From Bacteroidota bacterium (GTDB taxonomy: Bacteria; Bacteroidota; Bacteroidia; Chitinophagales; JADIYW01), in assembly GCA_028288625.1 (NCBI GenBank), contig JAQBNI010000102.1, positions 1 through 64,000 of the forward strand: 64,000 bases of DNA, read 5' to 3'. The notes beneath the pieces were generated by a model, which made no database searches, was not told the DNA's origin, and saw nothing but the letters and a program-made list of their open reading frames with translations. The first letter of the stretch is position 1; every line of letters starts with the position of its first letter. Made by a program: the position numbers and the translations under genes. Positions 30,511 through 63,139 of this stretch are shown here, one piece after another.

Positions 30511-30556
30511 TGGTCCCGCATGGGCTCGAACCATGGACCCCCTGATTATGAGTCAG
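30511..30556. repeat. attL: displaced 3' half of a CAU tRNA gene
   Basis: Matches the tRNA at 63094-63167 (minus strand) over its anticodon loop, T arm and acceptor 3' strand, then stops at base 30556. It differs at three bases: two compensate each other within the T stem (CATGG/CCATG against CTTGG/CCAAG) and one is in the acceptor stem. The last 22 bases (30535-30556) are identical to 63118-63139 and contain the crossover region. Confidence 0.85.
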
Positions 30557-30658: not shown

Positions 30659-30678
30659 GTTTGTGCAACGTTTGCGCA
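30659..30678 (+). repeat. Left subterminal repeat (candidate integrase arm site)
   Basis: GTTTGTGCAACGTTTGCGCA matches the right subterminal copy at 63026-63045 at 17 of 20 bases and in the same orientation. A 10-base TATCAATCAA also occurs near each end (30603-30612 and 62977-62986). Such paired sites inside both ends are typical arm-type binding sites for tyrosine integrases. Confidence 0.6.
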
Positions 30679-30708
30679 GAATTTTATGTTCATTTAAAAC
30701 CGAATACT

Positions 30709-31971
30709 ATGACTACAAGCGTTACTCTTCTTTTAGACAATCGCCGGGCAAAAGCTGACGGCACATATCCACTCATTGTGCGGATTATTCACAACCGGAG
30801 CATTGCTCAAATTACACTCGGTACTTACCTTTTGGAAAAAGATTGGAATGAAGAAAAACGTGTCATCAAAACATCTTTTAAAGGTACAGAATCTGTTACC
30901 CGTTTGAATAATTATATTCAAAAGAAAAAAACTCAAGTATCAGATTTTGTTACCAAACTTGATGAAATCAAAGTACTTCATACGATTAAAACTGCAAACC
31001 AAATTAAAGAACTGTTTGAAAAGAAATCAGATAATCTTTCCTTCTTTAAATATACACAAAAATTGATAGCCGAGTTGAAAGCAGCTAATAGGATTGGCAA
31101 TGCTCGTTCCTATAGTTTTGTGCTCAGTGTTTTGAAAAAGTATTGTAATGACAAAGAGTTGTCATTTAGTGATTTAAACTATACTTTTCTGGTAAAATTT
31201 GAAGCATCCCATTTGGGCAAGGGAAACAAGATAAATAGCCTTGCGGTCTATATGCGGACTATTCGGGCAGTCTATAATCGGGCAATTAAAGATGGACTTG
31301 TAGAACGAGAGTTATATCCATTTACCAATTACAAGATTAAAACTAAGAAAACGCAAAAGCGAGCCATTAGCATGGATGCTATAGAGAAAATCGTAGAGTT
31401 ACCTCTTGAACCTAATGATCCCCTGTATCACCCTCGTAATTACTTTCTAATGAGTTTCTATATGCGAGGTATACCCTTTGCTGATTTAGCCCAATTAAAA
31501 CTGTCTAACGTCATTAGTGGCAGAATCTACTATCAACGAAAAAAGACTGACAAGCCCTATAATATTAAAATTACCGACGAAATTGAAGGGATATTAAATA
31601 TCTATGCTAAGGACAAACAAAAAGACGACTATATCTTCCCTATTATCAAACGTACTGAACCGGCAGAGCAATATAAGGATGTTGAATGGGCTCGTAATCG
31701 CTATAACAAAAAACTCACTAAACTTGCAGAACGTTGTGATATTGAAGAAAATCTAACCAGTTATGTTTCCCGACATAGTTTTGCTACCCAAGCCAAAAAT
31801 CTGGGCATTCCGATTGCGGCTATTTCAGATATGCTAGGACATGAAAGCACCAAAACAACTGAAATATATTTAGATTCATTACCAAGCGAAATTATGGATC
31901 AGTATCATGAACAGGTTATTACTACTAATATAAAGAAGAAATTTAAAAAGCACACAAACAGTACTGCTTGA
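30709..31971 (+). CDS. Tyrosine recombinase / integrase of the mobile element
   Basis: 420 residues from the Met of MTTSVTLLLDNRRAKADGTYP, the normal start of this family; the frame is open 16 codons further upstream. An N-terminal arm-DNA-binding domain (~1-85) is followed by a SAM-like core-binding domain (~95-195) and a catalytic domain with FYMRGIPFADLAQLKLSNV (catalytic Arg), YVSRHSFATQAKNLG (Arg/His) and LGHESTKTTEIYLDSL (His and nucleophile Tyr). It recombines attP with the tRNA attB at 30.5/63.1 kb. It lies inside the element next to attL. Confidence 0.95.
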   Translation: MTTSVTLLLDNRRAKADGTYPLIVRIIHNRSIAQITLGTYLLEKDWNEEKRVIKTSFKGTESVTRLNNYIQKKKTQVSDFVTKLDEIKVLHTIKTANQIKELFEKKSDNLSFFKYTQKLIAELKAANRIGNARSYSFVLSVLKKYCNDKELSFSDLNYTFLVKFEASHLGKGNKINSLAVYMRTIRAVYNRAIKDGLVERELYPFTNYKIKTKKTQKRAISMDAIEKIVELPLEPNDPLYHPRNYFLMSFYMRGIPFADLAQLKLSNVISGRIYYQRKKTDKPYNIKITDEIEGILNIYAKDKQKDDYIFPIIKRTEPAEQYKDVEWARNRYNKKLTKLAERCDIEENLTSYVSRHSFATQAKNLGIPIAAISDMLGHESTKTTEIYLDSLPSEIMDQYHEQVITTNIKKKFKKHTNSTA

Positions 31972-33867: not shown

Positions 33868-33870
33868 TAC

Positions 33871-36369
33871 CTATTTAATTAGGAGATTTTCAAGGTTAAT
33901 TTGGAATATATATCTTCTGTTATGCTCGTTTCGTTTTTGCAAAAGAATGGCGGTTGAATCAACCGAATCCAATAATTGTTGGACAATAAATAATCCCAAT
34001 CCTCGACCTTCTCCTATTGGTTTTGATGTTACAAATGGTTGAAAGATAGTGTTTTCAAAATCAGGTAAAACACCATATCCGTTATCAGAAATAAATATTG
34101 AAGGTGACTTAACCTCTATGTCAATAACAGGTCTAAATTTCTTATCTGTTTTCGATATTTGCTTTAGCCAATATTCAGCATTTAGTATAATGTTGTCGAG
34201 AATCTGCGTTAATTTCCCTCTATTAATTTGAATCGAGAAATCAGAGTTTACTTTGATATTAATTAATATACTTTCCCCAAATCGAGTAGCATAATAGTTT
34301 TTTAGTTCTTCCGAAAATTTAGAGATTTGAATATTTTGTTTTGTTTCCCTGTTAAACTTTAAAGAAGGCGCCAAATGATTTAATTGAATGCGAATAGAAT
34401 GTAAAAAGGACTTAATATGTTCAACATATACAAAAAAGGTTGTGTTGCTAGTATTTTCCTTTTTGTTTTGTTTAGCGACTTGCTCGGTCTGGGCTGATAT
34501 TCTATCAATAATATTATACATCTCATGGGTAAAGGCTTCCGCCGTTATACCAAGCCCTGCCAATTCTGAAAATTGTATAATTTGCCTTTCGAGTTCATTA
34601 ATTTTCGGCTCTAAGTAGTTCGCATCATTTTCTAATTTTTTAGCATTCTGCAGTATCGTATTTATTTTTTCAAAAAGTTGGTTAGAGGCATTTAGTATTT
34701 TGTCAACATCTTCTAAAATTTGTAACGCCTTATTTTCTTCATGAGTAGAAAACAAGGGTTCGTTTTTTATTCTTTTTACTGCCGCGGTTACCTTAGCAGA
34801 CGTGGCCTTTAATTCAGCATGTACTGCTTTGGTTTCATTCTCGATTGCTGCAGATTGTTTGGCCGTACTAACAAGTCTGTCTTTAGTATCTTTAAACGAC
34901 CTTATGTTTCCTCTTTCTTCTGCATCTTGACTCTTTAACCCGTCATAACTTCTTCGAGTCTTTTCTAATACATCATTTACATTTTGAATAGTTAGATTTA
35001 TGATATTAAAGAAAGCTTTTGAGTAAGGTGTGTCAATAAAACCTTCCCTGTCAGTTTTTTCTATAAGGAATCTATTATCCTTAGCTGTAATAGATACAAA
35101 TCCAATTACGTTATCTGGTCGTAATAAGTAAAACGATCCTCCTGATGTTTGACTTTTCCGGAGTTGAAGCCAATCATCATTTCCCATTCCATACGGCTTA
35201 ATTCCAAAACCATCTCTAAAAATTCTAACTCCAATTTGATTTTTTACCAACTGCTTATATTCTGAAAGTTTATCATAAGCAGATTCTATTTCTTCAGTTC
35301 CACTAATATTAAACTCATCAATTTCACCAATAAATTTGCCAGGGTTAGCCAATATGGGTTTTTGAGTTTTATCATCAATGACTATTTCTTTCTTAATGTC
35401 TTTCTCAAAATCAAACACTCTTTTGAAAGTAATGAATATCCCATTCTTACCGGAATATTTTACATCAGGAATGAAGTATTTTTTATTATCAGTGGCATTA
35501 GTTAAAAAGTGAAAGAAATTAGCGCCGTTATCAGATTGAATTATACGCGAAAATATTTCACGCTTCTCGGTGCTATTCCCTTGTAATTTAGACAGCTTTA
35601 AAGTGCCATTAACAGTTAGTTTATTACCGTCAAATTCAAACGTATAACTACTTATCGCTTGCTGTCTTAGCTTTTCATTTATGGCATCCAAGTCGTTAGG
35701 CTGACCATTAATATTTAAGTAGATGTTAAATGGTCTACTTTCTTTAAATGGAAAGATCAACTTGGATAATTGACCTCTAAATTTATCACCAGCTTCGGCA
35801 GTCCATATATCAGGATTTCTTAGATCAGATATAACTAATTTAGTACCGTGCTTTTTAGTGGATTTTTGCACCTCCTTGTAATTTGTATCTACTGCTTCTA
35901 GGGAACTATTTTCTGTAAAGTGCCGCCAATCAAAAGCAACATGATGTAATTTACTTTCATTGTTTATACAGCTATACATTTCAAGAATATGACCAAGCCG
36001 TTGAGTACTCAGCCTTCCCAACCCTTTATCTCCCAAAGGAGTGCGCTTCTTTTTCGTTACCTCACCTTTTTCTTTCATCTCTCTTTTGTGAGATACAGAT
36101 ATAAACAACCAACGGGAAATAATATCATTATAATTCATTCCGTGGCCGTTATCTTCAATAATGATATATCCCTTACTATTCTGAAAGGTTAATCCTTCTT
36201 CCTCAGGAGATTCAGTTGTATTAATTGATATTTTAACCCAATCTGCATCTGCATCATAAGAGTTCTTCACTAACTCCATGATTGCTGTTAATTCATCGGA
36301 AACCAACTCTTCTCCCAATTGCTTAACAACGGCAGCACTTATTCTAAATTTTGCATCGTTATTTGCCAC
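33871..36369 (-). CDS. Dual-GHKL protein: MORC/HSP90-like N-terminal ATPase plus histidine-kinase-like C-terminal domain
   Basis: 832 residues with a GTG start that overlaps the methyltransferase gene by 11 bases. The N-terminal GHKL ATPase has MELVKNSYDADAD (Asn36), IEDNGHGM (71-78) and TPLGDKGLGRLSTQRLG (110-126). An S5-like domain follows, including VRIFRDGFGIKPYG (~381-394), a combination typical of MORC/MutL-like ATPases linked to restriction systems. A long coiled coil (~460-600) leads to an H-box-like segment with His615 (EAFTHEMYNI). The second GHKL domain near the C terminus has NIILNAEYW, SDNGYGVLP and GRGLGLFIVQQL. Predicted to bind ATP twice and possibly phosphorylate the receiver protein encoded 3 bases downstream. 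Cytoplasmic; no TM segments. Confidence 0.8.
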   Translation of the reverse strand: MANNDAKFRISAAVVKQLGEELVSDELTAIMELVKNSYDADADWVKISINTTESPEEEGLTFQNSKGYIIIEDNGHGMNYNDIISRWLFISVSHKREMKEKGEVTKKKRTPLGDKGLGRLSTQRLGHILEMYSCINNESKLHHVAFDWRHFTENSSLEAVDTNYKEVQKSTKKHGTKLVISDLRNPDIWTAEAGDKFRGQLSKLIFPFKESRPFNIYLNINGQPNDLDAINEKLRQQAISSYTFEFDGNKLTVNGTLKLSKLQGNSTEKREIFSRIIQSDNGANFFHFLTNATDNKKYFIPDVKYSGKNGIFITFKRVFDFEKDIKKEIVIDDKTQKPILANPGKFIGEIDEFNISGTEEIESAYDKLSEYKQLVKNQIGVRIFRDGFGIKPYGMGNDDWLQLRKSQTSGGSFYLLRPDNVIGFVSITAKDNRFLIEKTDREGFIDTPYSKAFFNIINLTIQNVNDVLEKTRRSYDGLKSQDAEERGNIRSFKDTKDRLVSTAKQSAAIENETKAVHAELKATSAKVTAAVKRIKNEPLFSTHEENKALQILEDVDKILNASNQLFEKINTILQNAKKLENDANYLEPKINELERQIIQFSELAGLGITAEAFTHEMYNIIDRISAQTEQVAKQNKKENTSNTTFFVYVEHIKSFLHSIRIQLNHLAPSLKFNRETKQNIQISKFSEELKNYYATRFGESILINIKVNSDFSIQINRGKLTQILDNIILNAEYWLKQISKTDKKFRPVIDIEVKSPSIFISDNGYGVLPDFENTIFQPFVTSKPIGEGRGLGLFIVQQLLDSVDSTAILLQKRNEHNRRYIFQINLENLLIK

Positions 36370-37780
36370 CCTTTCTAAATATTAAAATATCTTCAGTAGT
36401 CATTAATACTGAACTATTATTTTTTTTTGCCATTCTTTTATTAATAATCTCACGTTCAATTTTAGTTACTAATATTCCACCCTTAGATAAAATAAAATCT
36501 TTTAGTATCTCATTATTAGGAATCTCTATTCCTCCTACTGTTCTATTTCCTATAGTCCATACTTGATATGAATTAGGTTTCATCACCTCAAAAACTTTTT
36601 CAACTACTTGAAATAAATCTTTTAAAAAGACTACTACTTTATCAGCCTTATCGGGCACAATAGACTTTAACTTTTCGTGAACATCTTTGAATGATTGAGA
36701 TTTGTTATACAAAGAATTTAATTCGTCAAAATTCAGTTTTTTTACTTTCCCTCCTAATGAACGACTATCAATTTCTGAAGTTGTTCTTAATGAATCATTA
36801 TTAGCTTTTATGTCTATATCACACAAATCAATCCATTGTAATGGTAGATACGAATACTGGCCATAGGTCACCGTTGTTTTATTATCTCCATATGGTGGTG
36901 ATGTAACTAACAGATCATAAAAATTATTTGAATTATTACGGGTAATAATTTTTTTGCTTGAATCCTGTAAACTAAATTGAATCTCACCTTTATAACTTCC
37001 TTTTGAAAGTTGATTTGATTTCAATAATAATTGTCTATATAATTCTAAATCTTCAATACTTTGCAGTAAATGAGTCTTGAATTCAACTATAGGAGATAAA
37101 TTTCTTTTTTCAATTTCATCTAATGCTCTTGCATGCATCTTAAAAGTTGAAGTTCTATCATTAGAAGTTATACGAACAATTTCTGCGAGATTAACCCAGT
37201 AGAATCTTCTAATAGCTAATCGTGGTTCTTGTCTTATTGCTCTTACAATTCTTGATAGCTCAATAGATACGTTATTTTTAAACCATTTATTACGAGACTT
37301 AAATTTGGCTTCAATAACACGAGACTTATCATTTTCAATATCTGAAATAAGTTCTTTATATTTCTCACGTATTGCTTTCACATAATATGGTCCAGTTCTT
37401 GTTTTCCCGATCAGTAGAGATAACGGATTAATGTCTTGTCCATAACAATTTAATCCATTTTGCATACAAGCGACCAAACTTGTTGCGGAACCCATAAAGG
37501 GATCAATTACTTTTTGGATAGTAGGATTTATTTGTTTTATTATATCAATCACATTTTTTTGAACAATGGGAACCATCATTGCAGGGTATTGAAAAAATCT
37601 ATGCGCATATTCCCTTCTATTTCGATCAGGAGAAGTCCATACAGTACTATTTTCGGAAGTAAGTCTTTCTATTCGCCTTTTAATAAGTACATCTACATAT
37701 TCAGGCGTACGCTTATTCTGAGCCTTAAGAGACAAATTAACATTTGCTCTAGATATATATGAATTACCTGTTATAGTCAT
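36359..37780 (-). CDS. SPPY-type DNA methyltransferase (first gene of MTase-GHKL-receiver operon)
   Basis: 473 residues. SAM motif DPFMGSATS (93-101) and catalytic SPPY (294-297), the same gamma-like order as the methyltransferase at 28.75-30.35 kb. REYAHRFFQYPAMMVP before motif I is the equivalent of that protein's HRLHPYKGKF segment, so the two are related. Predicted to methylate an exocyclic amino group of cytosine or adenine in DNA. It is the first gene of a three-gene minus-strand operon with a dual-GHKL kinase-like protein and a receiver protein. No nuclease gene is recognisable, so the restriction step, if any, must be in the unknown C-terminal region of the receiver protein or be of another kind. 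Confidence 0.85.
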   Translation of the reverse strand: MTITGNSYISRANVNLSLKAQNKRTPEYVDVLIKRRIERLTSENSTVWTSPDRNRREYAHRFFQYPAMMVPIVQKNVIDIIKQINPTIQKVIDPFMGSATSLVACMQNGLNCYGQDINPLSLLIGKTRTGPYYVKAIREKYKELISDIENDKSRVIEAKFKSRNKWFKNNVSIELSRIVRAIRQEPRLAIRRFYWVNLAEIVRITSNDRTSTFKMHARALDEIEKRNLSPIVEFKTHLLQSIEDLELYRQLLLKSNQLSKGSYKGEIQFSLQDSSKKIITRNNSNNFYDLLVTSPPYGDNKTTVTYGQYSYLPLQWIDLCDIDIKANNDSLRTTSEIDSRSLGGKVKKLNFDELNSLYNKSQSFKDVHEKLKSIVPDKADKVVVFLKDLFQVVEKVFEVMKPNSYQVWTIGNRTVGGIEIPNNEILKDFILSKGGILVTKIEREIINKRMAKKNNSSVLMTTEDILIFRKGGK

Positions 37781-37814
37781 GCAATAGTTTACATATAAAA
37801 CTTCTCTAATTTAG

Positions 37815-37822
37815 CAAATATA
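37815..37822 (-). promoter_or_regulatory. Candidate Bacteroidota -7 promoter element
   Basis: TATATTTG on the minus strand fits the -7 consensus TAnnTTTG and lies 35 bases before the methyltransferase ATG. No convincing -33 TTTG is seen at the expected distance, so this is tentative. Confidence 0.4.
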
Positions 37823-38051
37823 GGGAATAATATAGAGCTATTGGCTTCTCACCGTAAATGAAAATGCTTTGAATAAGTGGCTAATAGACCATGGTCCACT
37901 TGCTTTTATTTTATATTCTGATATACTATGGCCAACATAGCAACGATTCATCTGGAATAGTTTGAATATAGTTTTCTATTTGCTTGATGTTTCAAGCATT
38001 GTTTCATTTCTCCTTAGTAAATTCTTTTTCATCACCAATAAAATATGTAAA

Positions 38052-38984
38052 ATGGAAACAAGTAAAGTAAACGTGATTAACGAAGTCACCGTAAAGCTCG
38101 TTGCCCTACTCGACAAAGTAAGTAACGGCGATATTGAATATTGGATACCGCTTTCAGGGTTAGCGTATAATCCGGTCACGAAACACACGTACAATAGTTT
38201 AAATCAACTATTATTATCATTTGCCTTGCAAAAAATGCATTATAATCATAATAACTGGCTTTCGTTTAAGCAGATTAATGAGGCGGGTGGCACAGTCAAT
38301 AAGGGTGAAAAATCTACCTTGATTACCTTTACCGATGTGCTGTATTTTGATAAAGATAATAACAAGCTTTCTGCACAGGAAGCAATTAAGAAAGCGCAGA
38401 TCGAAAATGCGGGTATAAGAAAGTATAAAGATATTGCCATTTCTACCAAACGCTTTTTGAAGTATTACTATGTGTTCAATGTAGCGCAAACAAATGGACT
38501 TCCTGCTGAAATTATCGCGCCTGATTTGGTAAAATTACTGGATAAAGATAGGTTTGATATGGCAGACGAGATTGCACATGAAAATGGTGTTCTTATTAAA
38601 CACGTTTCAGGTAATTCTGCACACTATGAAGTTACCAATGATATTATACAAATGCCATTCTTGAAGCAATTTAAATCAACTGAAAATTACTACGCCACAC
38701 GCTTTCATGAAATAACACATTGGACAGGAAACGAAAAGAGATTAAATAGATCTTTTAGGAAAAAAGGTAGCCCTGAATATGCATTTGAAGAATTGATTGC
38801 GGAATTAGGCAGTACGTTTATGTGTGCGCATCTTCAAATTAAAGCTCCTCTTACTTCATCGGCTGCGTATGTTAAATCATGGTTGTCTGCTTTGGAGAAT
38901 GATAGAACATATATTCTAAAGGCGGTATCTCATGCAGAACGAGCAGTTCAATTCCTCTTAAAAAAACAAACCATCAGTGTTTAA
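38052..38984 (+). CDS. ArdC-like antirestriction protein with zincin metallopeptidase domain
   Basis: 310 residues from the Met of METSKVNVINEV; an upstream in-frame Met adds an unlikely hydrophobic leader. The N-terminal ArdC-type ssDNA-binding domain (~10-140) has WLSFKQINEAGGTVNKGEKSTLITF. The C-terminal metallopeptidase has HEITHWTGNEKR (HExxH) with a downstream EELIAELGS. ArdC proteins protect incoming plasmid or conjugative DNA from host restriction. Its presence fits a transferred element and it may also protect the element against the neighbouring methylation-based systems. It has its own terminator. Confidence 0.85.
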   Translation: METSKVNVINEVTVKLVALLDKVSNGDIEYWIPLSGLAYNPVTKHTYNSLNQLLLSFALQKMHYNHNNWLSFKQINEAGGTVNKGEKSTLITFTDVLYFDKDNNKLSAQEAIKKAQIENAGIRKYKDIAISTKRFLKYYYVFNVAQTNGLPAEIIAPDLVKLLDKDRFDMADEIAHENGVLIKHVSGNSAHYEVTNDIIQMPFLKQFKSTENYYATRFHEITHWTGNEKRLNRSFRKKGSPEYAFEELIAELGSTFMCAHLQIKAPLTSSAAYVKSWLSALENDRTYILKAVSHAERAVQFLLKKQTISV

Positions 38985-38996
38985 CTGGTGGTTTTT
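38970..38996 (+). terminator. Intrinsic terminator of the ArdC-like gene
   Basis: Stem ACCATCAG/CTGGTGGT (one G-T pair) spanning the stop codon, followed by five T residues. Confidence 0.8.
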
Positions 38997-39152
38997 ATGT
39001 TTTGCTTATTATTACTATCTCATTGATAATCTTAGACTAATCTATTGATAGTTTGATTACACACATTTAAATTTAAAAAAAAATCGTATTATTGAATTAT
39101 AAAATTTAGTAATAGAATCAATTATACATATTGATTAAACCATTATATAAAT

Positions 39153-40286
39153 ATGTCTAAAAAATATTGTTTTATAGTATCGCAGATAGGGATTGATGGA
39201 ACCCTAATAAGAGAAGTTGCTAATGCTGTCAAAAATAATATTATCAAACCTGCGATTGAATCAAATTACGATTTTGATAGATCGGATAGTCAATCATATC
39301 CGGGAGACATCGGAAAACAAATTGCAAATAGCATAATTACCGCAGATTTAGTTGTGGCAGATGTTACGCCTAATATTATAAAAAGAAGATTTTCCAAACC
39401 TATTATACAATTTAATGCAAATGTCATCTATGAGGTGGGCTTAAGACATGCATTAAACTTACCTATTATTACAATTTGTTCAAAAGATTATTTGGATAAC
39501 TATCAATTACCTTTTGATTTATCAAAATCAAGAACAATTCCTTTTAATTTAAATGCGACGAATGATGCTATTGATAGCATTAAAAGAATGCTAACTGAAA
39601 TTGAAAAACCAAACACATTCAAAATATACTCAGATTTTGCTGATGTACTTTATAATGAAAAGGGTATTTCAATTGATCACTTGCTTTCAGGAAAGTTTAG
39701 TCATTTGATCTCATGGGAATTATCATCAGAGCTAGAAGTAAATGCAAAAAATGTACTTGCTATTACACACAATCTAAATTGGGCTTCTCAACAGATTGAT
39801 AAACTCATTATAGATGTACAAAATCATCCATCACAATCAAATTATCATTGTTATATTTTAGTAGATAAAGACCCTTCTTCTAACCAGAACCTAGATATTA
39901 TGACTAAAAAAATTTCTAATGTTCCCGGAATGGAAAAACATTTTGAAATAAGAATAATTTCAACTGCTGAATATGAACAGATAAGAATAGATCCCTTTGT
40001 AAAAGAAATTATTCCTTTGCATAGTGATTTTGTAATTTATGAAAAGACAACTCATCCCAAAATTACAAATGGTATTGAGCACACATTTTTAGTAATCAGT
40101 ACATCTGCTGTACCGCCGCCCGCATTTATTTCCGCTACAAGTAAAAAAATCAACTATGATGTGATTATTGAAAATGCCTCTCAGGTTAACACGGTATATT
40201 ATTGGTTTAAGAATATGTGGAATAAAATTGGCGATTCTAGAAAAACACATACTCCACCCTTATCTACTTTTATAGATTTAATATGA
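39153..40286 (+). CDS. Nucleoside 2-deoxyribosyltransferase-like protein with C-terminal domain shared with the next gene
   Basis: 377 residues. Residues ~5-150 resemble the nucleoside 2-deoxyribosyltransferase/DRHyd fold: YCFIVSQIG, ADLVVADVT (64-72) and NVIYEVGLRHALNLPII, with Glu94 at the position of the catalytic Glu. Such domains cleave or transfer N-glycosidic bonds of (deoxy)nucleosides or nucleotides, and some serve in phage defence. Residues ~185-355 (LISWELSSELEVNAKNVLAI ... VIYEKTTHP ... YYWFKNMWNKIG) align with residues ~147-320 of the following protein. This C-terminal alpha/beta module is unrecognised. First gene of a six-gene plus-strand operon that ends in an ABC importer. Confidence 0.72.
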   Translation: MSKKYCFIVSQIGIDGTLIREVANAVKNNIIKPAIESNYDFDRSDSQSYPGDIGKQIANSIITADLVVADVTPNIIKRRFSKPIIQFNANVIYEVGLRHALNLPIITICSKDYLDNYQLPFDLSKSRTIPFNLNATNDAIDSIKRMLTEIEKPNTFKIYSDFADVLYNEKGISIDHLLSGKFSHLISWELSSELEVNAKNVLAITHNLNWASQQIDKLIIDVQNHPSQSNYHCYILVDKDPSSNQNLDIMTKKISNVPGMEKHFEIRIISTAEYEQIRIDPFVKEIIPLHSDFVIYEKTTHPKITNGIEHTFLVISTSAVPPPAFISATSKKINYDVIIENASQVNTVYYWFKNMWNKIGDSRKTHTPPLSTFIDLI

Positions 40287-40307
40287 CAATAAATTAAATA
40301 ATAATAG

Positions 40308-41300
40308 ATGGCTGATTCAAAAATAAAAGACTTACTGCAAAAAATAAATGATGGTTCAAAACATGACGAAGTAAAATTGGACCTTCATAAGGCGCAACTA
40401 GATTATTGGGCAAAATCAGTTGGTCTAGCAGTTGCTGTAATAGGTATAGTTCTCACAATAATAAGCTTAACAGGTATTAATAAATTACCAGAAGAAAAAA
40501 CCTTCATTTATTTGTATTTAGGTACAGCTGCATTTGTATTCTTCATTATATTTGCGACTGTTTTATATTTTCAAATTACTCGAATAACCGATCAATTAGC
40601 AAAAAATTATGCAGATTTTAAAACTGTTTTAGAAACATTCATATATTTGGAAGACACGTATAATTTGAAAATTATAAACTTAGGAAAACAAATTTCCATT
40701 GCAGAAGCAACAGCAAAAAACATAGCTAACGCACCCTTGTCGAACTTAATTTCATGGAACCAATCTGGAAAACTTGAATTAGAAGCCTCTAGAGTCTTTG
40801 CTATATCAATTGACTTATCATGGGTTAACAATCAAGACAAACTAGAAGAAATATTTATGGATTTAAGAGCAAATCCTGATGACAAATATTTCTATATAGT
40901 AACCTCAAATTCTGAAACAGCACTAAAGAATATTAATGATATTAATACTTTCTTAGCAAAAGAAATTCAAAATAATCCCGAGATAAAATATAAAGAAAGA
41001 TTTAAAATAATCAAGTTAATTGATTTAGAAAAAGACGGGTGTAAGATATTTCCTGATGGTAATTTCACATTGCCTATTCCTAACGATATCGTAATCTATA
41101 AGAAAATTACAGCTGGAAGAGTTGAAAAAACTGCTGTTATTAGTACACAAACTATTACAAAGACAAACCAAAGGTCTGCTGATGAACTTGATAATAATTA
41201 TGATGTAAAATTTACTGATCACAATGCAGTAAGTAGAATTGAGCTGTGGTTCAAAAGGACTTGGGAAGAAATTACAACGGAAAACATAAGTAATGAGTAA
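40308..41300 (+). CDS. Two-TM protein sharing a C-terminal domain with the upstream deoxyribosyltransferase-like protein
   Basis: 330 residues. Two TM helices (~38-56 and ~67-90) follow a short soluble N terminus, and a helical stretch (~91-140) links to a C-terminal domain at ~147-320. This domain has LISWNQSGKLELEASRVFAI, DIVIYKKITAG, AVISTQ and RIELWFKRTWEEI in the same order as its neighbour. The protein therefore looks like a membrane-bound partner carrying the same module. The 2-TM layout recalls sensor or SLATT-like conflict proteins, but no family can be named. It overlaps the next gene by 8 bases. Confidence 0.65.
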   Translation: MADSKIKDLLQKINDGSKHDEVKLDLHKAQLDYWAKSVGLAVAVIGIVLTIISLTGINKLPEEKTFIYLYLGTAAFVFFIIFATVLYFQITRITDQLAKNYADFKTVLETFIYLEDTYNLKIINLGKQISIAEATAKNIANAPLSNLISWNQSGKLELEASRVFAISIDLSWVNNQDKLEEIFMDLRANPDDKYFYIVTSNSETALKNINDINTFLAKEIQNNPEIKYKERFKIIKLIDLEKDGCKIFPDGNFTLPIPNDIVIYKKITAGRVEKTAVISTQTITKTNQRSADELDNNYDVKFTDHNAVSRIELWFKRTWEEITTENISNE

Positions 41301-42129
41301 TATAAAAACATGGTCGGATACTTTAACGCAGTTTCTTAAGTCTTCTAACGAAGATGAAAAAATACTAAGTCTATTTAGAAAGAATATTTTACCGAAAATA
41401 AATAATACTGTTAGAGGAGAAACCTTGAGTTGGTTAGAGATCGGTGTCGGTAACGGAAACAAGACCCAAATGATTGCACATGCAATAGCCAGTTTACATC
41501 AATTCAAAAGAATAAAACTCACTATTTGTGAGCCGAGCATTAATTGGCTTAATGACTTAAAATATTCTAGTTTTTCCGAAGATTTGCCCACGTTAGTTCA
41601 ATTAGATTTTAGGAATAACAGTATTGAGCAATTTATTAGTTTGCAGAAGGAAATGAGTTTTGATTTCATTTCTTTAGTTCAAGTAATGTATTCAATAAAT
41701 ATTAAGAACGCTATATTAGAATACATTGATAGAAGACCTAAGGATAAACCATGCTTACTTTGGATAGACGTAGAAGATAAATCTGGTGATTTTTATAAAA
41801 TACGCAAACTCCTCTATCAAAAAGCAAAAGATATAATTCCTTCATTATTGGATGAATTGTTGTATGATCTAGAAATTAGAAATATCTCGTATGAAACCTT
41901 TCTTACCTCAGATAAAATTTGCACTATAAATGTAAAAGAAGTTTTGACTAATGAAAACCATTGGCTATTTCCATTTATTTTAGGCTATAACATTAATGAT
42001 TTTAATACAATGCCATCTAATAATAAAAATCTAGTCATAAACATCATAAGAGATTATATTTCAGGGCTTGGAAGAAATGAATTAAATATTCCAGATATTT
42101 CTGTTCTGATACATTTAGATAACGAATGA
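41293..42129 (+). CDS. SAM-dependent class I methyltransferase-like protein
   Basis: 278 residues. The SAM-binding glycine motif is LEIGVGNGNKTQMI (~48-61), followed by an acidic end of strand 2 (LTICEPSINWL) and FDFISLVQVMYSI as motif IV. The fold resembles small-molecule methyltransferases (histamine-N-methyltransferase type), not DNA methyltransferases; no DPPY/SPPY motif is seen. Substrate unknown. It overlaps the previous gene by 8 bases and the ABC ATPase gene by 4 (ATGA), so all are translationally coupled. Confidence 0.7.
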   Translation: MSNIKTWSDTLTQFLKSSNEDEKILSLFRKNILPKINNTVRGETLSWLEIGVGNGNKTQMIAHAIASLHQFKRIKLTICEPSINWLNDLKYSSFSEDLPTLVQLDFRNNSIEQFISLQKEMSFDFISLVQVMYSINIKNAILEYIDRRPKDKPCLLWIDVEDKSGDFYKIRKLLYQKAKDIIPSLLDELLYDLEIRNISYETFLTSDKICTINVKEVLTNENHWLFPFILGYNINDFNTMPSNNKNLVINIIRDYISGLGRNELNIPDISVLIHLDNE

Positions 42130-42911
42130 ATAAAACAGTAATAGAAAATATAAGACACGCTTTTGTAAATAAAAGAGACTCTCTAGAAGTGATTAGGAAG
42201 TTTTCAATATCTGTAAATGAAGGCGAAACAATTGCCATTTTAGGCCCTTCAGGCTGCGGAAAATCTACAATTTTACGATGCATAGCAAGTTTGATTAAAC
42301 CCTTAAGTGGTTCAATTACTATAAATAATATACCTTCAACTATTGCAATAAAGAAAAAAATGATTGGTTTTGCTTTCCAGGAAGCAGCTTTATTGGAGTG
42401 GGAAACGGTTGTTAATAATATACTATTACCAGGCAAAATAGGACTTCACACAAAAACCATTGCAGAATTGGAAAAAAAATCCGAAGAATTGATAAGTTTA
42501 ATGGGATTAACTGGATTTGAATGCTTCTACCCATCACAGCTATCGGGTGGGATGAAACAACGAGTCGCATTGGCAAGAGCACTGCTATTGGAGCCATCTC
42601 TTTTATTGCTGGACGAACCTTTCGGTTCATTAGATTTACTAACAAGATCAAATCTAATTGTAGAATTTAGTAAAATAATGTCAGTAAACAAAATTCCTAC
42701 CATTATAGTCACCCATAGTGTTGAAGAGGCGGTTTTTTTAGCAGACAAAGTATTAATACTCTCTCCGAGGCCTTGTAGTATAATTGCAGAAATAAGTCCT
42801 GAATTAGTTGAAGAGAAATCGTTTAAAATGTTTGACGACGCCGCTTTTATTACTAAAGTTGCTGAATGCAGGAAAATACTTTTAGAAAGTTGGAACAATG
42901 ACAAAAATTAA
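42126..42911 (+). CDS. ABC importer ATPase (SsuB/TauB/ThiZ-like)
   Basis: 261 residues. Walker A GPSGCGKST (~40-48), Q-loop FAFQEAALLEW, signature LSGGMKQR, Walker B LLLLDEPFGSLD, and the H-loop His in VTHSVEEA. This is the nitrate/sulfonate/taurine/pyrimidine importer class. It energises uptake with the permease that overlaps it by 14 bases and the lipoprotein binding protein downstream. Confidence 0.93.
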   Translation: MNKTVIENIRHAFVNKRDSLEVIRKFSISVNEGETIAILGPSGCGKSTILRCIASLIKPLSGSITINNIPSTIAIKKKMIGFAFQEAALLEWETVVNNILLPGKIGLHTKTIAELEKKSEELISLMGLTGFECFYPSQLSGGMKQRVALARALLLEPSLLLLDEPFGSLDLLTRSNLIVEFSKIMSVNKIPTIIVTHSVEEAVFLADKVLILSPRPCSIIAEISPELVEEKSFKMFDDAAFITKVAECRKILLESWNNDKN

Positions 42912-43665
42912 ATATCATATTAACTACACAATTCCATTAACAGTTTTTATTCTGTTATTAATATCATGGGAATTCTTGCCTAAGACATTTAATATCCCTA
43001 CTTATATTTTTCCAAGACTATCACAAATATATAATGCGATAGTTTTAAACAAAGCCAATATTGTTGTTCATTTTAAAACTACACTTTTAGAAGCAACTAT
43101 AGGTTTTATTCTAGGGTCTCTTATTGGTTTCTTAGTTGGGGTTGCTATGGCTCAATCAAAATTATTTTCCAACGTTGCGCTGCCATATGTAATTGCCTCA
43201 AATGCTATCCCTGTAATTGCTATTGCACCAATTATCATTTTGTGGTTTGGTCAAGGTATTGTCGCAAAAGCCATTGTATCCGCTTTCTTATGTTTCTTTC
43301 CCTTAGTGATAAATACTTATAAAGGATTAAATGAATATAATTTAATTTATAAAGAACTATTTCAGCTTTATGGAGCGTCCCACAGTGATTTTTTATTAAA
43401 ATTTAAATTGTCAAATGCCGTTCCATATATAATTTCAGGTTTAAAATTAAATGCCACTTTTGCCGTTGTCGGTGCCGTTGTCGGTGAATTTATAGGAGCG
43501 AATGCCGGGTTAGGATTTGGTATGCTCCAAGCATCATATAGTCTAAATACACCACGTCTGTGGGGCTATATTCTGATTTCATGCTTACTTGGAGTGACAA
43601 TGTACTTATTAATGTATTTACTTGAATTGTACTTATTGAGGCACAGAATAAATGATAATAATTAA
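42898..43665 (+). CDS. ABC importer permease (SsuC/ThiX/RibX-like)
   Basis: 255 residues with six predicted TM helices. The inner-membrane permease EAA-like loop is at ~150-180 (YKELFQLYGASHSDFLLKFKLSNAVPYIISGLKL). VGAVVGEFIGANAGLGF is characteristic of the nitrate/sulfonate/thiamine-precursor permease class. It pairs with the ATPase of the preceding gene. Confidence 0.92.
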   Translation: MTKIKYHINYTIPLTVFILLLISWEFLPKTFNIPTYIFPRLSQIYNAIVLNKANIVVHFKTTLLEATIGFILGSLIGFLVGVAMAQSKLFSNVALPYVIASNAIPVIAIAPIIILWFGQGIVAKAIVSAFLCFFPLVINTYKGLNEYNLIYKELFQLYGASHSDFLLKFKLSNAVPYIISGLKLNATFAVVGAVVGEFIGANAGLGFGMLQASYSLNTPRLWGYILISCLLGVTMYLLMYLLELYLLRHRINDNN

Positions 43666-43676
43666 AAACAAACTTT

Positions 43677-44684
43677 ATGAAATATCTATTAGTGTTACTT
43701 ATTCCAATTGGAATGTTTCTTTCAGGTTGTAACTCTTGCAGTAAACCTAAAGACACAACAATTAACTTACGACTGCAGTGGATACCTCAAACGCAATTTG
43801 CAGGATATATTGTGGCTAAACAAAAAGGATTTTATGAAGCGGAAGGATTAAAAGTAAACCTTAATCCAGCGGGTCCTGATTTAAAACCTCAGGTAACAGT
43901 TGCAAATGGTTCGGATCAAATTGGTATTGGTGTACCGAATCAAGTTATTTCAGCAAGAACTAATGGAGTGCCATTAGTAACTATTGCTCAAATTTTTCAA
44001 GATTCTCCTAATAGATATGTACTGAAAAGTCAAAATAAAATTGACAGCTTAAAACAATTAAAAGGGAAAAAGATAGGATTATGGCTTGGAGGGGACGAAG
44101 CAGAATTTGTATCAATGCTTAAGACGGCAAATATGACTTTAAACGATGTAACAGTGGTTGCACAAGAATATTCAGTAGCGCCTTTTTTACAAGACCAATA
44201 TGTTTTATCAATGGTTACGGTATACAATGAATTAAACCTAATTCAAAAGGAAGGTTACCAAGGGGACAGATTGCAAATATTATCTCCTAAGGATTATCAT
44301 TCGGCTATTTTGGGTGATATGATATTTACTACTGACAAATATATTAAAGATAACCCAGGAACAGTTCAAAAATTTCTGACTGCCTCAATCAAGGGATGGA
44401 AGTATTGTATAGATCATCCTGAAGAAGCATTAGATATTGTAATGAAATACAATCCTGAATTGAACAGAGATGAACAAAAATATATGTTAACCGCATGTAT
44501 TGGTTTGATAAAGACTGGTAGTAGTCTCACAAATGGCATCGGGTATATTAATGAAGATGATTATAGTAATGCTCAAAGAATTTTAAAAATTTCTAAGCAG
44601 ATTGATAAGGAAGTTGATATCAAAACTACGTTCAATCTTTCCATCTGGAACGAAGTTCCAGATAGTGTTAAAGTTTTAAAATAA
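43677..44684 (+). CDS. NMT1/THI5-like (ThiY/RibY-type) substrate-binding lipoprotein
   Basis: 335 residues. The lipoprotein signal ends in MFLSGC (Cys18). The mature part has the NMT1/THI5 pattern: LRLQWIPQTQFAGYIVAKQKGFYEAEGLKV, then SDQIGIGVPNQVISART, LKGKKIGLW and the helical ATIKGW-like segment (ASIKGWKYCIDHPEEALDIV). In related importers the ligand is a pyrimidine (thiamine precursor), riboflavin, sulfonate or nitrate. Here the deoxyribosyltransferase-like gene upstream favours a nucleobase-like ligand, but that is inference. Last gene of the six-gene operon. Confidence 0.88.
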   Translation: MKYLLVLLIPIGMFLSGCNSCSKPKDTTINLRLQWIPQTQFAGYIVAKQKGFYEAEGLKVNLNPAGPDLKPQVTVANGSDQIGIGVPNQVISARTNGVPLVTIAQIFQDSPNRYVLKSQNKIDSLKQLKGKKIGLWLGGDEAEFVSMLKTANMTLNDVTVVAQEYSVAPFLQDQYVLSMVTVYNELNLIQKEGYQGDRLQILSPKDYHSAILGDMIFTTDKYIKDNPGTVQKFLTASIKGWKYCIDHPEEALDIVMKYNPELNRDEQKYMLTACIGLIKTGSSLTNGIGYINEDDYSNAQRILKISKQIDKEVDIKTTFNLSIWNEVPDSVKVLK

Positions 44685-44704
44685 TTAAAGATAATTGATA
44701 TAAG

Positions 44705-44740
44705 AGAAGCCGCCTCAAATTGAAGCGGCTTCTTTATTTT
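44705..44740 (+). terminator. Strong intrinsic terminator of the six-gene operon
   Basis: Perfect 9-bp GC-rich stem AGAAGCCGC/GCGGCTTCT (44705-44713 / 44725-44733) followed by a T-rich stretch (TTATTTT). It closes the deoxyribosyltransferase-methyltransferase-ABC operon. Confidence 0.9.
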
Positions 44741-44997
44741 GCTGTATGGGATCTTCCCATGCTTTCAGAATGAAAACCTGATGTCCTAATTAGACTAACA
44801 ACATAATCTTAAAATTAATATAAAATTTGGGAAAAACAAATTTTACTTATTCTAAACTTATTATTAACTCTAAAAAGGTAGTCCTTCTAACCATATAAAC
44901 CAACCTTCTTAAAGAAATTTAAGTCGAATTGATTTACTTACTCAAACAAATATGCGTGCGATTTCGTACTTTCAATGATATAAACCATGCTTCTATT
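44741..44997. other. Intergenic region before the Rhs-like remnant
   Basis: About 257 AT-rich bases with no gene and no recognised element. Confidence 0.5.
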
Positions 44998-45564
44998 ATG
45001 GGGTCATTGAACAATATTCTATGTGCTTTTTTAGCAATATCCCCTATTTTCTATTTAAACGCTCAACAGTCGTATGATCCCTTCCAATATGGAAACTCTC
45101 CCAACCCGATTCAACCACCCTATGTCCCAAGTCTTGAGCAATTGCGCAATAACTCTCAGACGCAAATAAATTCTACCAATTATGAGGCGATGAAAAAAAC
45201 AGGATATGTTAGTCCACCCACCCAAGCTGATATTATTGCCAATCAACAAAGGCAGTTGCAAGGAAAACCACCTAAACTTTCAAAACAGCAAGAGTTGGAA
45301 AAAGAGATGACAAGTTTACTACAAGAATTAACCAAAAATAATCAGTTAGCACATGAGGAAGATTATTATCATTCATCAAAATACTTAAATGATTTACCTA
45401 ATTATGTAAAAGCAAAAAGTCGTATCAAAGATATGCTTGATGGTAAAATTCCTCTATCGGTAAAAGATGCTTATTACCTTGCCGAATCTGCTTATGGAAA
45501 TGTACCGCTCACGTACGAAGAATACAATAAACTCATCGCATCCGTTTACAAGCATACATCCTAA
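44998..45564 (+). CDS. Secreted hypothetical protein, probably C-terminally truncated
   Basis: 189 residues from the Met of MGSLNNILCAFLAISPIFYLNA, which gives a good signal peptide ending before QQ. The frame is open 23 codons further upstream from a TTG without benefit. The rest is Pro/Gln/Asn-rich, then helical and charged, ending in AYYLAESAYGNVPLTYEEYNKLI. I do not recognise a family with certainty, but this ending looks like the middle of longer Bacteroidota proteins. It is cut short where the Rhs-core frame begins (98-base overlap in another frame). Possibly a gene truncated by recombination. Confidence 0.5.
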   Translation: MGSLNNILCAFLAISPIFYLNAQQSYDPFQYGNSPNPIQPPYVPSLEQLRNNSQTQINSTNYEAMKKTGYVSPPTQADIIANQQRQLQGKPPKLSKQQELEKEMTSLLQELTKNNQLAHEEDYYHSSKYLNDLPNYVKAKSRIKDMLDGKIPLSVKDAYYLAESAYGNVPLTYEEYNKLIASVYKHTS

Positions 45565-46543
45565 AGATGACAAATCTTCGAAGTATAAATCGCTTTCAGG
45601 AGGTTTGTTTCAGGAGGTGTTTGAACAAAAGAAATATGAACCATATGGACATTTCATATTCAATACGACAACCCTAAACATATCAAAAATAGACAGCAAA
45701 GCCGAAGATAATCTTTTAATAGATCCTGTTGCATTTGCCTATGATTTTGGAGCGAGAATATATGATGCGAGACTTGGTAGATTTTTGAGTACTGACCCAT
45801 CGACTTCCAAATTTCCTGGGATGAGCCCTTACAACTCATTTAATGACAATCCTGTATTATATGTTGACAAGAATGGCAGAGAGCCTGACCGCAACCAAGC
45901 AGGTACAATCTCTGAAGCAGTTGCACAGTGGAAAAACCTTAAAAATCCGTCATCTTGGACAATTATGAAATACATCCAGACTGATCCTAATGCCGTAAGA
46001 TACGTCTATACAGAGAAAGGTGGATGGATAGATTTACAGCATTATTGGGGAGCAATTAACTATGGTAAAGCGGCGATGGACGCATTAGAGCCAGCAAGTG
46101 GAAATAAATTCTTACAAAATCATGTTTTAGGAAAAGGATCAAATGAAAGCTATTATTCTTATGAGGATTTACCCTCCAATAAATTTGGCTCAGAAGCTCC
46201 TATTTGGAAAAAAGAGCATGTTGTAGTTAATAGGTATGGAACCACTGTTGAAAGTATGAAACAAGGTGCTGAATTATTTAGTGCTGTACAAAAACAATTC
46301 ACTGATGCAAAAGCAACAGAACCTGAACAAGCACCAAATTGGAGAGGTATACCATTTCAAGATCATACACAATTAAGAAATAGGTTGCCAGATGATTGCA
46401 GTGATAATAATTGTGAAGAAATAAAAACGGGAGATTTTATACCTCAAAATCACACGAGTGAACCATATAATTTAAAAGATTTTGCGCCAGCAGCAAGTAG
46501 TATAAACAAAGGAAATACAGTAGTTGGAAATACAGGACACTAA
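45467..46543 (+). CDS. Truncated Rhs protein: core boundary plus C-terminal toxin tip
   Basis: At most 358 residues; the true start is unclear and the long N-terminal YD-repeat shell is missing. Residues ~85-142 are the Rhs core end (YDFGARIYDARLGRFLSTDP ... MSPYNSFNDNPVLYVDKNG). The variable tip follows, about 215 residues with GWIDLQHYWGAINYG and SYYSYEDLPSNKFGSEA, resembling polymorphic-toxin tips. Its activity is unknown. As it stands it is an orphan tip. It could be a silent cassette that is recombined onto a full Rhs gene elsewhere, or a degraded remnant. A candidate immunity gene follows directly. Confidence 0.65.
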   Translation: MLITLPNLLMEMYRSRTKNTINSSHPFTSIHPKDDKSSKYKSLSGGLFQEVFEQKKYEPYGHFIFNTTTLNISKIDSKAEDNLLIDPVAFAYDFGARIYDARLGRFLSTDPSTSKFPGMSPYNSFNDNPVLYVDKNGREPDRNQAGTISEAVAQWKNLKNPSSWTIMKYIQTDPNAVRYVYTEKGGWIDLQHYWGAINYGKAAMDALEPASGNKFLQNHVLGKGSNESYYSYEDLPSNKFGSEAPIWKKEHVVVNRYGTTVESMKQGAELFSAVQKQFTDAKATEPEQAPNWRGIPFQDHTQLRNRLPDDCSDNNCEEIKTGDFIPQNHTSEPYNLKDFAPAASSINKGNTVVGNTGH

Positions 46544-46550
46544 ATATTTT

Positions 46551-47006
46551 ATGAAAAACACGTATTGGTTAACTATAGTTATCATAATTATATTTCTTTC
46601 TTCTTGTACAAGAAAATTAGATTATGAAAAAAACAAATCAGAATATGATCTAATTGTTAATTGTCTTTTAAAAAACTATCCAAAATTATATGATTCAATA
46701 ATAAATACACCTCTAAAAGGTTCTATTTATACCGATGATTTAAAACTAATTTGTAAAAAATGTAATTTTAAAGTAGATAATGTAATGGATGATATAGAAT
46801 CTATTAATTTGTATGAAGATACAACCATAGCATTTTATCCAAAGTGTAGTGGTAACAATATCATTTTACTTATTTATTCATCTAATCCATCCTCTCTTGA
46901 CATTAGAGATATAGTATTAGCCAAATATGACAATAGATACAAAGCCTATAAGCAGATTAACAGCCATTGGTTATACATTAAAGGAAATATTGGCATGGCT
47001 AATTGA
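46551..47006 (+). CDS. Small lipoprotein, candidate immunity protein for the Rhs tip
   Basis: 151 residues from the Met of MKNTYWLTIVIIIIFLSSC; nine more codons are open upstream and overlap the toxin gene. The lipobox LSSC marks it as a lipoprotein. The mature part is acidic and mixed alpha/beta with a CKKC pair, and no family is recognised. It sits 7 bases after the Rhs-tip stop, which is the usual place for an immunity gene; a lipoprotein would match a toxin acting in the cell envelope. Confidence 0.55.
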   Translation: MKNTYWLTIVIIIIFLSSCTRKLDYEKNKSEYDLIVNCLLKNYPKLYDSIINTPLKGSIYTDDLKLICKKCNFKVDNVMDDIESINLYEDTTIAFYPKCSGNNIILLIYSSNPSSLDIRDIVLAKYDNRYKAYKQINSHWLYIKGNIGMAN

Positions 47007-51635: not shown

Positions 51636-51801
51636 AATAATCAAGTTTTATAGTTAGAAATTAGATTAACACATGTGATACTGCAATAAGTATAATCGTA
51701 TCCTAAAAAATAGCTTAAAGATCATTTTGGAGAGTATTTGAATGAGTGAACGGTCATAATACTGAGTAAGCGGTTCTATTTTTACATATGTATCTAAAAT
51801 T

Positions 51802-54800: not shown

Positions 54801-54960
54801 CTTGCTTAGGTAATTCTTTTTCAGAATACCCAAACTCTTTTAGTACATATTGATTTAAACGCCCTGGAGAACCATCTGAGTCAATAGAGGTAAAAGCGAT
54901 ATCAGATTCTTTAGGAGAAGCTCCCATTCTGACTTTATAATTACCGTTAATTCTTTCCAT
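51802..54960 (-). CDS. KAP-family P-loop NTPase with macro-like and EVE-like N-terminal domains
   Basis: 1052 residues. Residues ~10-160 look macro-domain-like (ILWLPLMGSGDGGLTLEES). Residues ~183-265 resemble the EVE/PUA-type module of McrB-like proteins (IWKTGYEDKYADIINLVKKDD; FIKSTFARDN). The KAP NTPase has Walker A LFGDWGSGKSFF (359-370) and Walker B ILYIDDLDRCSDEKVLEVLQ, followed by VVVGVDKR. Its internal insertion carries a coiled coil and two TM helices (~570-615), as expected for KAP proteins. KAP NTPases are membrane-linked and often plasmid- or phage-exclusion related. The EVE-like part could read modified bases. It heads a minus-strand series with the PLD-like gene. Confidence 0.78.
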   Translation of the reverse strand: MERINGNYKVRMGASPKESDIAFTSIDSDGSPGRLNQYVLKEFGYSEKELPKQDQLIAGFSALSKTGKRSILFVVTLGAGNTSDNLKKNLYNTLTEFHTWFHNKILWLPLMGSGDGGLTLEESYSITVKTINKFLAEYPTSVTFILSLPDDDNGKQLLDKINLTNVTEHEAVDKAFKNYKGNFYLVGTNWNGEEQAEVFYDQSIWKTGYEDKYADIINLVKKDDVIFIKSTFARDNISTLRIKAIGRIIDNINDGQSFKVDWKVKNIKVDIPNLGYYRNTIDRLTEKDLNTILHIIGRETIYNAGLLDIEIWGRSSENIKLDNDTAFSPDDLLDISNEIEVFARLLAQRNLSPPLAIALFGDWGSGKSFFINHLQLRIKQLSESRIVRKDNEDELYYCKNILHISFNAWAYLDANLWVGFMTCIFEKIDEYISGLSKGNAVKSEIKEKLSNELEFIKGQKTNILNKKHGLEQKKKALENDIEKEKQKLDETIKKLIVESWIDRVDLIWNELKIKDKYAEQLERLGLTPEILQKTAREDIQKKVYSFKNYMNQFRSLSGFQLIGTIIFILFLLNLFLVADSGWFNKLVSRSTSIIVTVVFGLSAVIIKIRAAYSFFKPYVDKALNVQLVFNQKLKETERIHQDKITKAQIEKETTSNEIDKLQLEIKKLDNEIEGIDYSLTHALEKIVLADFIKKRSISKDYTDKLGIVSVIRKDLETLSELFVDQKINPSLPEIEKKQLEERKNKLQKIKAEFNGEPIERIILYIDDLDRCSDEKVLEVLQAVHLLMAFPLFIVVVGVDKRCVTNALFQSERSKYYKLHTEGEIISHKIQPIEPNEYLEKIFQIPFQLKEASKEVVDNMIESLLAKDIIYNPDINKTIITHEKTQSDKEEQLSVGSSVISKKEVLSKKDIGPDDLKITEQELIYIKEMSHLVGSSPRTIKRYINMYRLIKAYEGLGNNKSEKEIICTLFNLALNIGKYRADSHEFFDLIKSNKTSLLEDIFKLYSSSSGTEFYNELINHAPVIERIKEYSGNDIIRHLSFIKRFSFNTEKEK

Positions 54961-63083: not shown

Positions 63084-63093
63084 ATTTTATTAG

Positions 63094-63139
63094 TGGTCCC
63101 ACTTGGGCTCGAACCAAGGACCCCCTGATTATGAGTCAG
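63094..63139. repeat. attR: element-supplied 3' half of the tRNA
   Basis: Direct-repeat partner of 30511-30556 (43 of 46 identical, last 22 bases identical). It marks the right end of the mobile element. Confidence 0.85.

What the first reader, a model, noticed from the sequence alone, without database searches (positions are those of the whole stretch)
39153..44684. Six-gene operon joining a deoxyribosyltransferase-like enzyme, a 2-TM partner with a shared domain, a SAM methyltransferase and a ThiY-type ABC importer
Six plus-strand genes have gaps of 21 bases or less, or overlaps of 4-14 bases, and end in a strong terminator. The first carries a nucleoside-deoxyribosyltransferase-like domain (ADLVVADVT, NVIYEVG). 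The second has two TM helices and a C-terminal domain clearly homologous to that of the first (LISW..., VIYxK..., WFKxxW). A class I methyltransferase and a full NMT1/THI5-type importer follow. I know no described pathway or defence system with this set. It could import and modify a pyrimidine-like compound, or form a nucleotide-based conflict system whose membrane part and soluble enzyme recognise the same partner through the shared module.
Basis: partly seen in the sequence, partly recalled or inferred. Interest (0 to 1): 0.85.

Follow-up and report, generated by a model that had tools for sequence, protein, structure and literature searches.

The report
DrHyd enzyme, 2TM partner, importer operon
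A mobile DNA element in a Bacteroidota-type genome carries a one-transcript set of six genes in which a nucleotide-cutting enzyme and a small membrane protein share the same new domain, as infection-defence pairs often do, followed by a methyltransferase and a nutrient-type importer; the pair looks like a new variant of a known defence design, and the link to the importer is unexplained.

Summary
Six plus-strand ORFs at 39153-44684 are 21 bases or less apart, or overlap, and end in a strong hairpin terminator. Proteins 1 and 2 share a C-terminal domain (28% identity, E 4e-18). Residues 1-150 of protein 1 have the nucleoside-deoxyribosyltransferase/DNPH1/TIR fold with the catalytic-type Glu kept. 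In other genomes this domain is fused to Macro or TPR-S domains, lies beside TIR proteins, and rides in temperate phages and plasmids: a nucleotide-signal conflict context, not pyrimidine salvage. Protein 2 is a 2TM hairpin with the shared domain. The operon is cargo of a 32.6-kb element integrated in tRNA-Met (36-bp att repeat, integrase, relaxase, coupling protein). The shared domain and protein 2 were found nowhere else in the samples and scans run; the methyltransferase has only weak, generic class-I relatives. The six-gene set is so far a single occurrence. The importer is NMT1/THI5 (ThiY-like) family; no TPP riboswitch was found and its ligand is unknown. Best reading: genes 1-2 are a new variant of the 'TIR/DrHyd enzyme + 2TM effector' abortive-infection pair; whether genes 3-6 supply or modify the signal, or are separate cargo, is open. 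No activity was tested.

The parts
39153..40286 (+). Gene 1: 377 aa, N-terminal DrHyd/NDT/TIR-type domain + shared C-terminal domain
39153..39602 (+). Residues 1-150 of gene 1: Rossmann-like domain; D70, N88, N90, E94, R98, P120, F121 conserved
   Evidence: AF2 pLDDT about 90; Foldseek to DNPH1, NDT, MilB, TIR; conservation
39678..40232 (+). Residues 176-360 of gene 1: shared C-terminal domain (LISW, VIYxK, WFKxxW)
   Evidence: BLASTP to gene 2, E 4e-18; alignment A1
40308..41300 (+). Gene 2: 330 aa, 2TM hairpin + shared C-terminal domain
40404..40589 (+). Residues 33-94 of gene 2: two hydrophobic segments 33-61 and 64-94 with a very short turn
   Evidence: hydropathy; no SLATT or other family above cut-off
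40728..41282 (+). Residues 141-325 of gene 2: copy of the shared C-terminal domain
41293..42129 (+). Gene 3: 278 aa, probable class I SAM methyltransferase
   Evidence: motif I LEIGVGNG; weak Pfam matches below cut-off; 27% over 128 aa to an ordinary class I methyltransferase
42126..42911 (+). Gene 4: ABC importer ATPase (nitrate/taurine/sulfonate class)
   Evidence: PF00005 1.9e-32; NCBIfam neighbours below equivalog cut-offs
42898..43665 (+). Gene 5: ABC importer permease
   Evidence: PF00528 1.6e-27
43677..44684 (+). Gene 6: NMT1/THI5-type solute-binding lipoprotein
   Evidence: PF09084 2.3e-50; PDB 4nmy 8.5e-25, ThiY 3ix1 9e-15
44703..44735 (+). Intrinsic terminator of the operon
   Evidence: dG -19.8, z -5.25
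30521..30556 (.). Left att repeat of the mobile element that carries the operon
   Evidence: 36-bp repeat, 1 mismatch, partner 63104-63139
63104..63139 (.). Right att repeat inside tRNA-Met (63093-63167, minus)
30661..31971 (+). Tyrosine integrase of the element
   Evidence: PF00589 1.1e-17

Best explanation
Genes 1 and 2 are a two-part defence (abortive-infection) pair carried as cargo on a mobile element. Protein 1 cuts the N-glycosidic bond of a nucleotide (NAD+ or a (deoxy)nucleoside monophosphate) with its N-terminal DrHyd/TIR-type domain, so making a signal or draining a pool. Protein 2 is a membrane hairpin with the N-terminus and the shared domain on the cytoplasmic side; when its shared domain binds the same trigger, or binds protein 1, the hairpins cluster and disturb the membrane. 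The shared domain is the sensor or assembly module common to both. Genes 3-6 are on the same transcript and may supply or alter the ligand, but are not needed for this reading. Shown: gene order, shared domain, fold of the enzyme domain, conserved catalytic-type residues, mobile context. Inferred: substrate, activation, topology, membrane damage, role of genes 3-6.
For: Shared domain E 4e-18. Enzyme domain: AF2 pLDDT about 90; Foldseek best hits include Cap12 TIR-STING, DNPH1, NDT, MilB/BcmB CMP hydrolases and SARM1 TIR, prob 1.00 for these; profile hits DNPH1/Rcl at 1.7e-5 and Cap12 at 0.03; E94 14/14 and D70 13/14 conserved. Relatives of the domain: fused to Macro and to TPR-S, next to ThsB-type or other TIR genes, next to a PDC-M50A 2TM protein and a TIR in L060, lone cargo genes in Streptococcus/Staphylococcus phages and plasmids; 6 of 6 relatives tested match PADLOC 'Effector TIR' PDLC00733. 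Literature: TIR/DrHyd/SLOG enzymes and phage-borne TIR + 2TM SLATT pairs (PMC9503650); 2TM sensors that cluster on nucleotide binding in Thoeris (PMC11204291). Low-GC mobile element.
Against: Neither protein matches any PADLOC, NCBIfam or SLATT model above threshold. No second genome holds the pair, so co-evolution could not be tested. No model of the shared domain: AF2 of protein 2 failed (pLDDT 38) and much of the region in protein 1 is below 50. Protein 1 has an insertion after D70 that the relatives lack. The positive-inside rule is not decisive for protein 2. No activity data.
Confidence: 0.5

Rival explanations
1. Two unrelated cargo modules share one transcript: a DrHyd + 2TM defence pair (genes 1-2, perhaps 3) and an ordinary NMT1-type nutrient importer (genes 4-6) that came together by chance on the element.
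For: No other locus combines the two: of 122 loci compared, 37 with the enzyme domain and 41 with the SBP, none has both; the three loci with the enzyme domain and any importer-gene match have only a distant generic ABC ATPase. SBP relatives stand with other metabolism or histidine kinases.
Against: Gene 3 and gene 4 overlap by 4 bases (ATGA), genes 4 and 5 by 14, with one terminator at the end, which favours co-expression. Composition is similar over all six genes (GC 29-34%, GC3 20-26%).
Confidence: 0.3
2. A salvage pathway: the importer takes up a pyrimidine or thiamine-like compound, protein 1 moves the base between nucleosides or cleaves it, and gene 3 methylates the product.
For: SBP resembles ThiY (FAMP-binding) and THI5; its closest plasmid relatives in rhizobia stand near a nucleoside hydrolase, phosphopentomutase or a pyrimidine nucleotidase; protein 1 has the nucleoside-deoxyribosyltransferase fold.
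Against: No TPP riboswitch in 36000-46000; no salvage enzymes in the operon; the domain family occurs with TIR, Macro and TPR-S partners and in prophages; gene 2 has no place in salvage.
Confidence: 0.12
3. Protein 1 is an inactive sensor: the DrHyd/TIR-type domain binds a nucleotide without cleaving it, and with gene 2 forms a receptor.
For: PMC9503650 describes members of this clade that bind nucleotides as sensors; the substrate side carries an insertion in gene 1.
Against: The catalytic-type Glu and Asp are kept.
Confidence: 0.08

Closest known systems
TIR + 2TM SLATT pairs of Firmicute phages; TIR-DrHyd-SLOG conflict systems (PMC9503650)
   Same: A nucleotide-cleaving Rossmann-like enzyme encoded next to a 2TM protein on a mobile element
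   Different: Here both proteins carry the same extra domain; 2TM part not matched by SLATT models; genes 3-6 added
Thoeris with TM-macro ThsA (PMC11204291)
   Same: TM part joined to a cytoplasmic sensor domain, partnered with a TIR-type enzyme
   Different: No Macro or SLOG domain; sensor is an undescribed domain; enzyme is nearer DNPH1/NDT/Cap12 TIR than ThsB
DNPH1/Rcl, MilB/BcmB and nucleoside 2-deoxyribosyltransferases
   Same: Fold and catalytic-type Glu of protein 1
   Different: Domain context is conflict-like; Pfam score below cut-off
PDC-M50 (candidate defence system of PADLOC, 2TM + TIR)
   Same: Found beside a relative of protein 1 in a Lokiarchaeota contig (L060)
   Different: Genes 1 and 2 do not match its models
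ThiXYZ / NMT1-type importers
   Same: One ATPase, one permease, one NMT1/THI5 lipoprotein
   Different: No TPP riboswitch or thiamine genes; ligand unknown

Membership tests
Nucleoside deoxyribosyltransferase / DrHyd superfamily (protein 1, residues 1-150) | Rossmann-like NDT/TIR fold | tested here: met
   AF2 pLDDT about 90; Foldseek prob 1.00 to DNPH1, NDT, MilB; profile to DNPH1 E 1.7e-5
Nucleoside deoxyribosyltransferase / DrHyd superfamily (protein 1, residues 1-150) | Catalytic-type Glu (YE.G) and Asp (VADVT) | tested here: met
   E94 14/14, D70 13/14; the Glu column aligns with the YELG of DNPH1
Nucleoside deoxyribosyltransferase / DrHyd superfamily (protein 1, residues 1-150) | Pfam PF05014 gathering score | tested here: not met
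   13.4 bits v 28.8
Nucleoside deoxyribosyltransferase / DrHyd superfamily (protein 1, residues 1-150) | N-glycosidic bond cleavage or transfer | not testable with these tools
   needs enzyme assay
SLATT 2TM effectors (protein 2) | Two TM helices in a short hairpin | tested here: met
   hydropathy 33-61, 64-94
SLATT 2TM effectors (protein 2) | Match to a SLATT profile | tested here: not met
   no SLATT family up to E 1
Thoeris | ThsA with SIR2-SLOG or TM-macro, ThsB TIR | tested here: not met
   no Macro, SLOG, SIR2 or ThsB match in genes 1-2
PDC-M50 | Match to PDC-M50A (2TM) and PDC-M50B (TIR) | tested here: not met
   genes 1-2 have no PADLOC match
ThiY-type (NMT1/THI5) importer (genes 4-6) | NMT1 SBP + permease + ATPase | tested here: met
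   PF09084, PF00528, PF00005; 3ix1 9e-15
ThiY-type (NMT1/THI5) importer (genes 4-6) | TPP control or thiamine genes nearby | tested here: not met
   no riboswitch; no thiamine gene recognised among the neighbours
ThiY-type (NMT1/THI5) importer (genes 4-6) | Binds a pyrimidine or thiamine precursor | not testable with these tools
   needs ligand assay
Class I SAM methyltransferase (gene 3) | Motif I and Pfam match | tested here: inconclusive
   motif LEIGVGNG present; 16.4 bits v cut-off 30
PLD-like fold for the shared domain (own idea) | Profile similarity to PLDc_2 | tested here: not met
   hhalign probability 0.8%, shuffled controls up to 0.6%

The most novel reading that the evidence does not exclude
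All six genes are one system in which the importer takes up a heterocyclic base, protein 1 puts it on an NAD+-derived or nucleotide scaffold by base exchange, gene 3 methylates it, and the resulting signal is read by the shared domain of proteins 1 and 2. This would be an immune signal whose chemistry depends on a scavenged compound.
Probability: 0.06. Interest if true: 0.9.

Novelty: new variant of a known kind. Interest (0 to 1): 0.5.

Why it matters
It would add a third kind of sensor module, besides Macro and SLOG, to the enzyme + membrane-effector design, and one that is present on both partners, which makes the question of what the two proteins share (a ligand or each other) directly testable. 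If the importer belongs, it would tie nucleotide-signal defence to uptake of an outside compound.

Tried and rejected
Gene 3 as a histamine-methyltransferase relative (seen by eye; no such PDB match up to E 10). Shared domain as a degenerate PLD fold (little better than shuffles). A weak gene 3 match in L008 (25%, with a stop) is taken as chance. Weak CTD hits in G534, G606 and others are short, at near-chance E-values, several with stops. AF2 of protein 2 with two sequences failed, so no fold search was made with it. Scans of viral and genome contigs with the shared domain found nothing. Neighbourhoods of the SBP relatives in other genomes of the phylum gave no substrate clue.
Full report
Observation. 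The six ORFs are present as described: gene 1 39153-40286 (377 aa), gene 2 40308-41300 (330 aa), gene 3 41293-42129 (278 aa), gene 4 42126-42911 (261 aa), gene 5 42898-43665 (255 aa), gene 6 43677-44684 (335 aa). Gaps and overlaps are 21, -8, -4, -14 and 11 bases. A hairpin at 44703-44735 followed by T-rich sequence folds at -19.8 kcal/mol, z -5.25 against shuffles. A terminator-like hairpin at 38968-38994 separates the operon from the upstream ArdC-type gene.

Shared domain. BLASTP of proteins 1 and 2 gives 28% identity over 231 residues, E 4e-18; MAFFT keeps LISW, VIYxK, KITxG, VIST, NYDV and WFKxxW. It is present in no other gene of the own genome at the thresholds used. No family library matches it above cut-off. 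I could not assign a fold: AF2 confidence is below 50 over much of the region, and a profile comparison with PLD-like domains was little better than shuffled controls.

Protein 1, residues 1-150. Pfam Nuc_deoxyrib_tr is only 13.4 bits, but PHROG 3634, a phage family of unknown function, matches at 1.1e-29. A profile of 14 relatives hits DNPH1/Rcl at 1.7e-5 and the Cap12 TIR-STING at 0.03. AF2 gives pLDDT about 90 for this part, and Foldseek finds TIR-STING Cap12, DNPH1, trypanosomatid NDT, MilB and BcmB CMP glycosidases and SARM1 TIR, with probability 1.00 for these. E94, N88, N90, R98, P120 and F121 are invariant, D70 13/14.

Context of that domain elsewhere. It is found in 38 phage records, mostly Streptococcus and Staphylococcus phages; in the two regions opened it is a lone gene antisense to most neighbours. 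It is also in 17 plasmid records and in 30 loci of the genome collection. Fusions: Macro (L058, L075) and TPR-S (L003, L056). Neighbours: ThsB-type TIR genes (L003, L056), TIR genes (L055, L057, L074, L075), and in L060 a 2TM protein of candidate system PDC-M50 plus a TIR. All six relatives tested match PADLOC's TIR 'Effector' PDLC00733; gene 1 itself does not. This is the context described for the TIR-DrHyd-SLOG clade in PMC9503650, which also reports TIR + 2TM SLATT pairs in Firmicute phages. TM-macro ThsA of Thoeris (PMC11204291) shows how a TM-sensor protein can act: nucleotide binding makes the sensor oligomerise and cluster the TM parts.

Protein 2. Two hydrophobic segments at 33-61 and 64-94 and no family match above cut-off. 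The hairpin with a cytoplasmic C-terminal domain is inferred; flanking charges are not decisive.

Genes 3-6. Gene 3 has a class I motif I but scores below all Pfam cut-offs; in 249 genomes of the order two weak matches appear, one an ordinary methyltransferase. Genes 4-6 are an importer of the nitrate/taurine/sulfonate class with an NMT1/THI5 SBP; nearest solved relatives are 4nmy (8.5e-25) and ThiY 3ix1 (9e-15). The own genome has no other such SBP at E 1e-10. Rhizobial and Tistrella relatives at about 33-37% stand by class II aldolase, nucleoside hydrolase, phosphopentomutase or nucleotidase genes, which hints at nucleoside-like ligands but at too low identity to assign one. There is no TPP riboswitch.

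Mobile context. A 36-bp repeat with one mismatch, 30521-30556 and 63104-63139, the right copy inside tRNA-Met, bounds a 32.6-kb element with the integrase next to the left copy, relaxase and type IV coupling protein. GC is 29-36% inside against 38-42% on the left flank up to 26 kb.

Distribution. Gene 2, gene 3 or the shared domain were sought in 295 genomes of the class, 395 and 345 of the phylum, 249 and 249 of the order, in plasmids, phages, viral contigs and the genome collection. No relative of gene 2 or of the shared domain was found, and no second six-gene set. The contig scans need near-exact peptide matches and the genome samples are partial, so absence is not proven.

Verdict. Genes 1-2: a new variant of the enzyme + 2TM effector kind of conflict pair (confidence 0.5). 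Genes 3-6 in the same system: open; two separate modules on one transcript remains a serious rival. All biochemical steps are inferred.

Noticed in passing
window 30521-63139: Integrated mobilizable element of 32.6 kb in tRNA-Met with 36-bp att repeat, integrase, relaxase (55147) and coupling protein (56572).
   Followed up: yes
window 44738-44804 (minus): Rfam finds a tRNA (35.4 bits, E 1.7e-4) directly after the operon terminator that ARAGORN does not call; by eye a degenerate Glu(TTC)-like tRNA.
   Followed up: partly
window 32011-37780 (minus): Three-gene set: MTase_II-like methyltransferase (36359), a protein with two HATPase domains (33871, weak REase_II match) and an unassigned 618-aa partner (32011); looks like a restriction or defence module.
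   Followed up: partly
window 27548-30351 (minus): Type II restriction-modification pair just outside the element; the REase ORF covers only the C-terminal part (142-359 of 370) of its model.
   Followed up: partly
window 51802-54960 (minus): KAP P-loop NTPase (PF07693) with an N-terminal region that by eye looks macro-like (not confirmed by Pfam).
   Followed up: partly
window 49872-51644 (minus): PLD-like protein with a weak DrmC match.
   Followed up: partly
window 45467-47006: RHS-core-like fragment without the long N-terminal part, followed by a small lipoprotein gene; possibly a displaced RHS tip with a partner.
   Followed up: no
L060 6932-8520: Lokiarchaeota contig with a relative of the gene 1 enzyme domain, a PDC-M50A 2TM protein and a TIR protein side by side.
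   Followed up: yes
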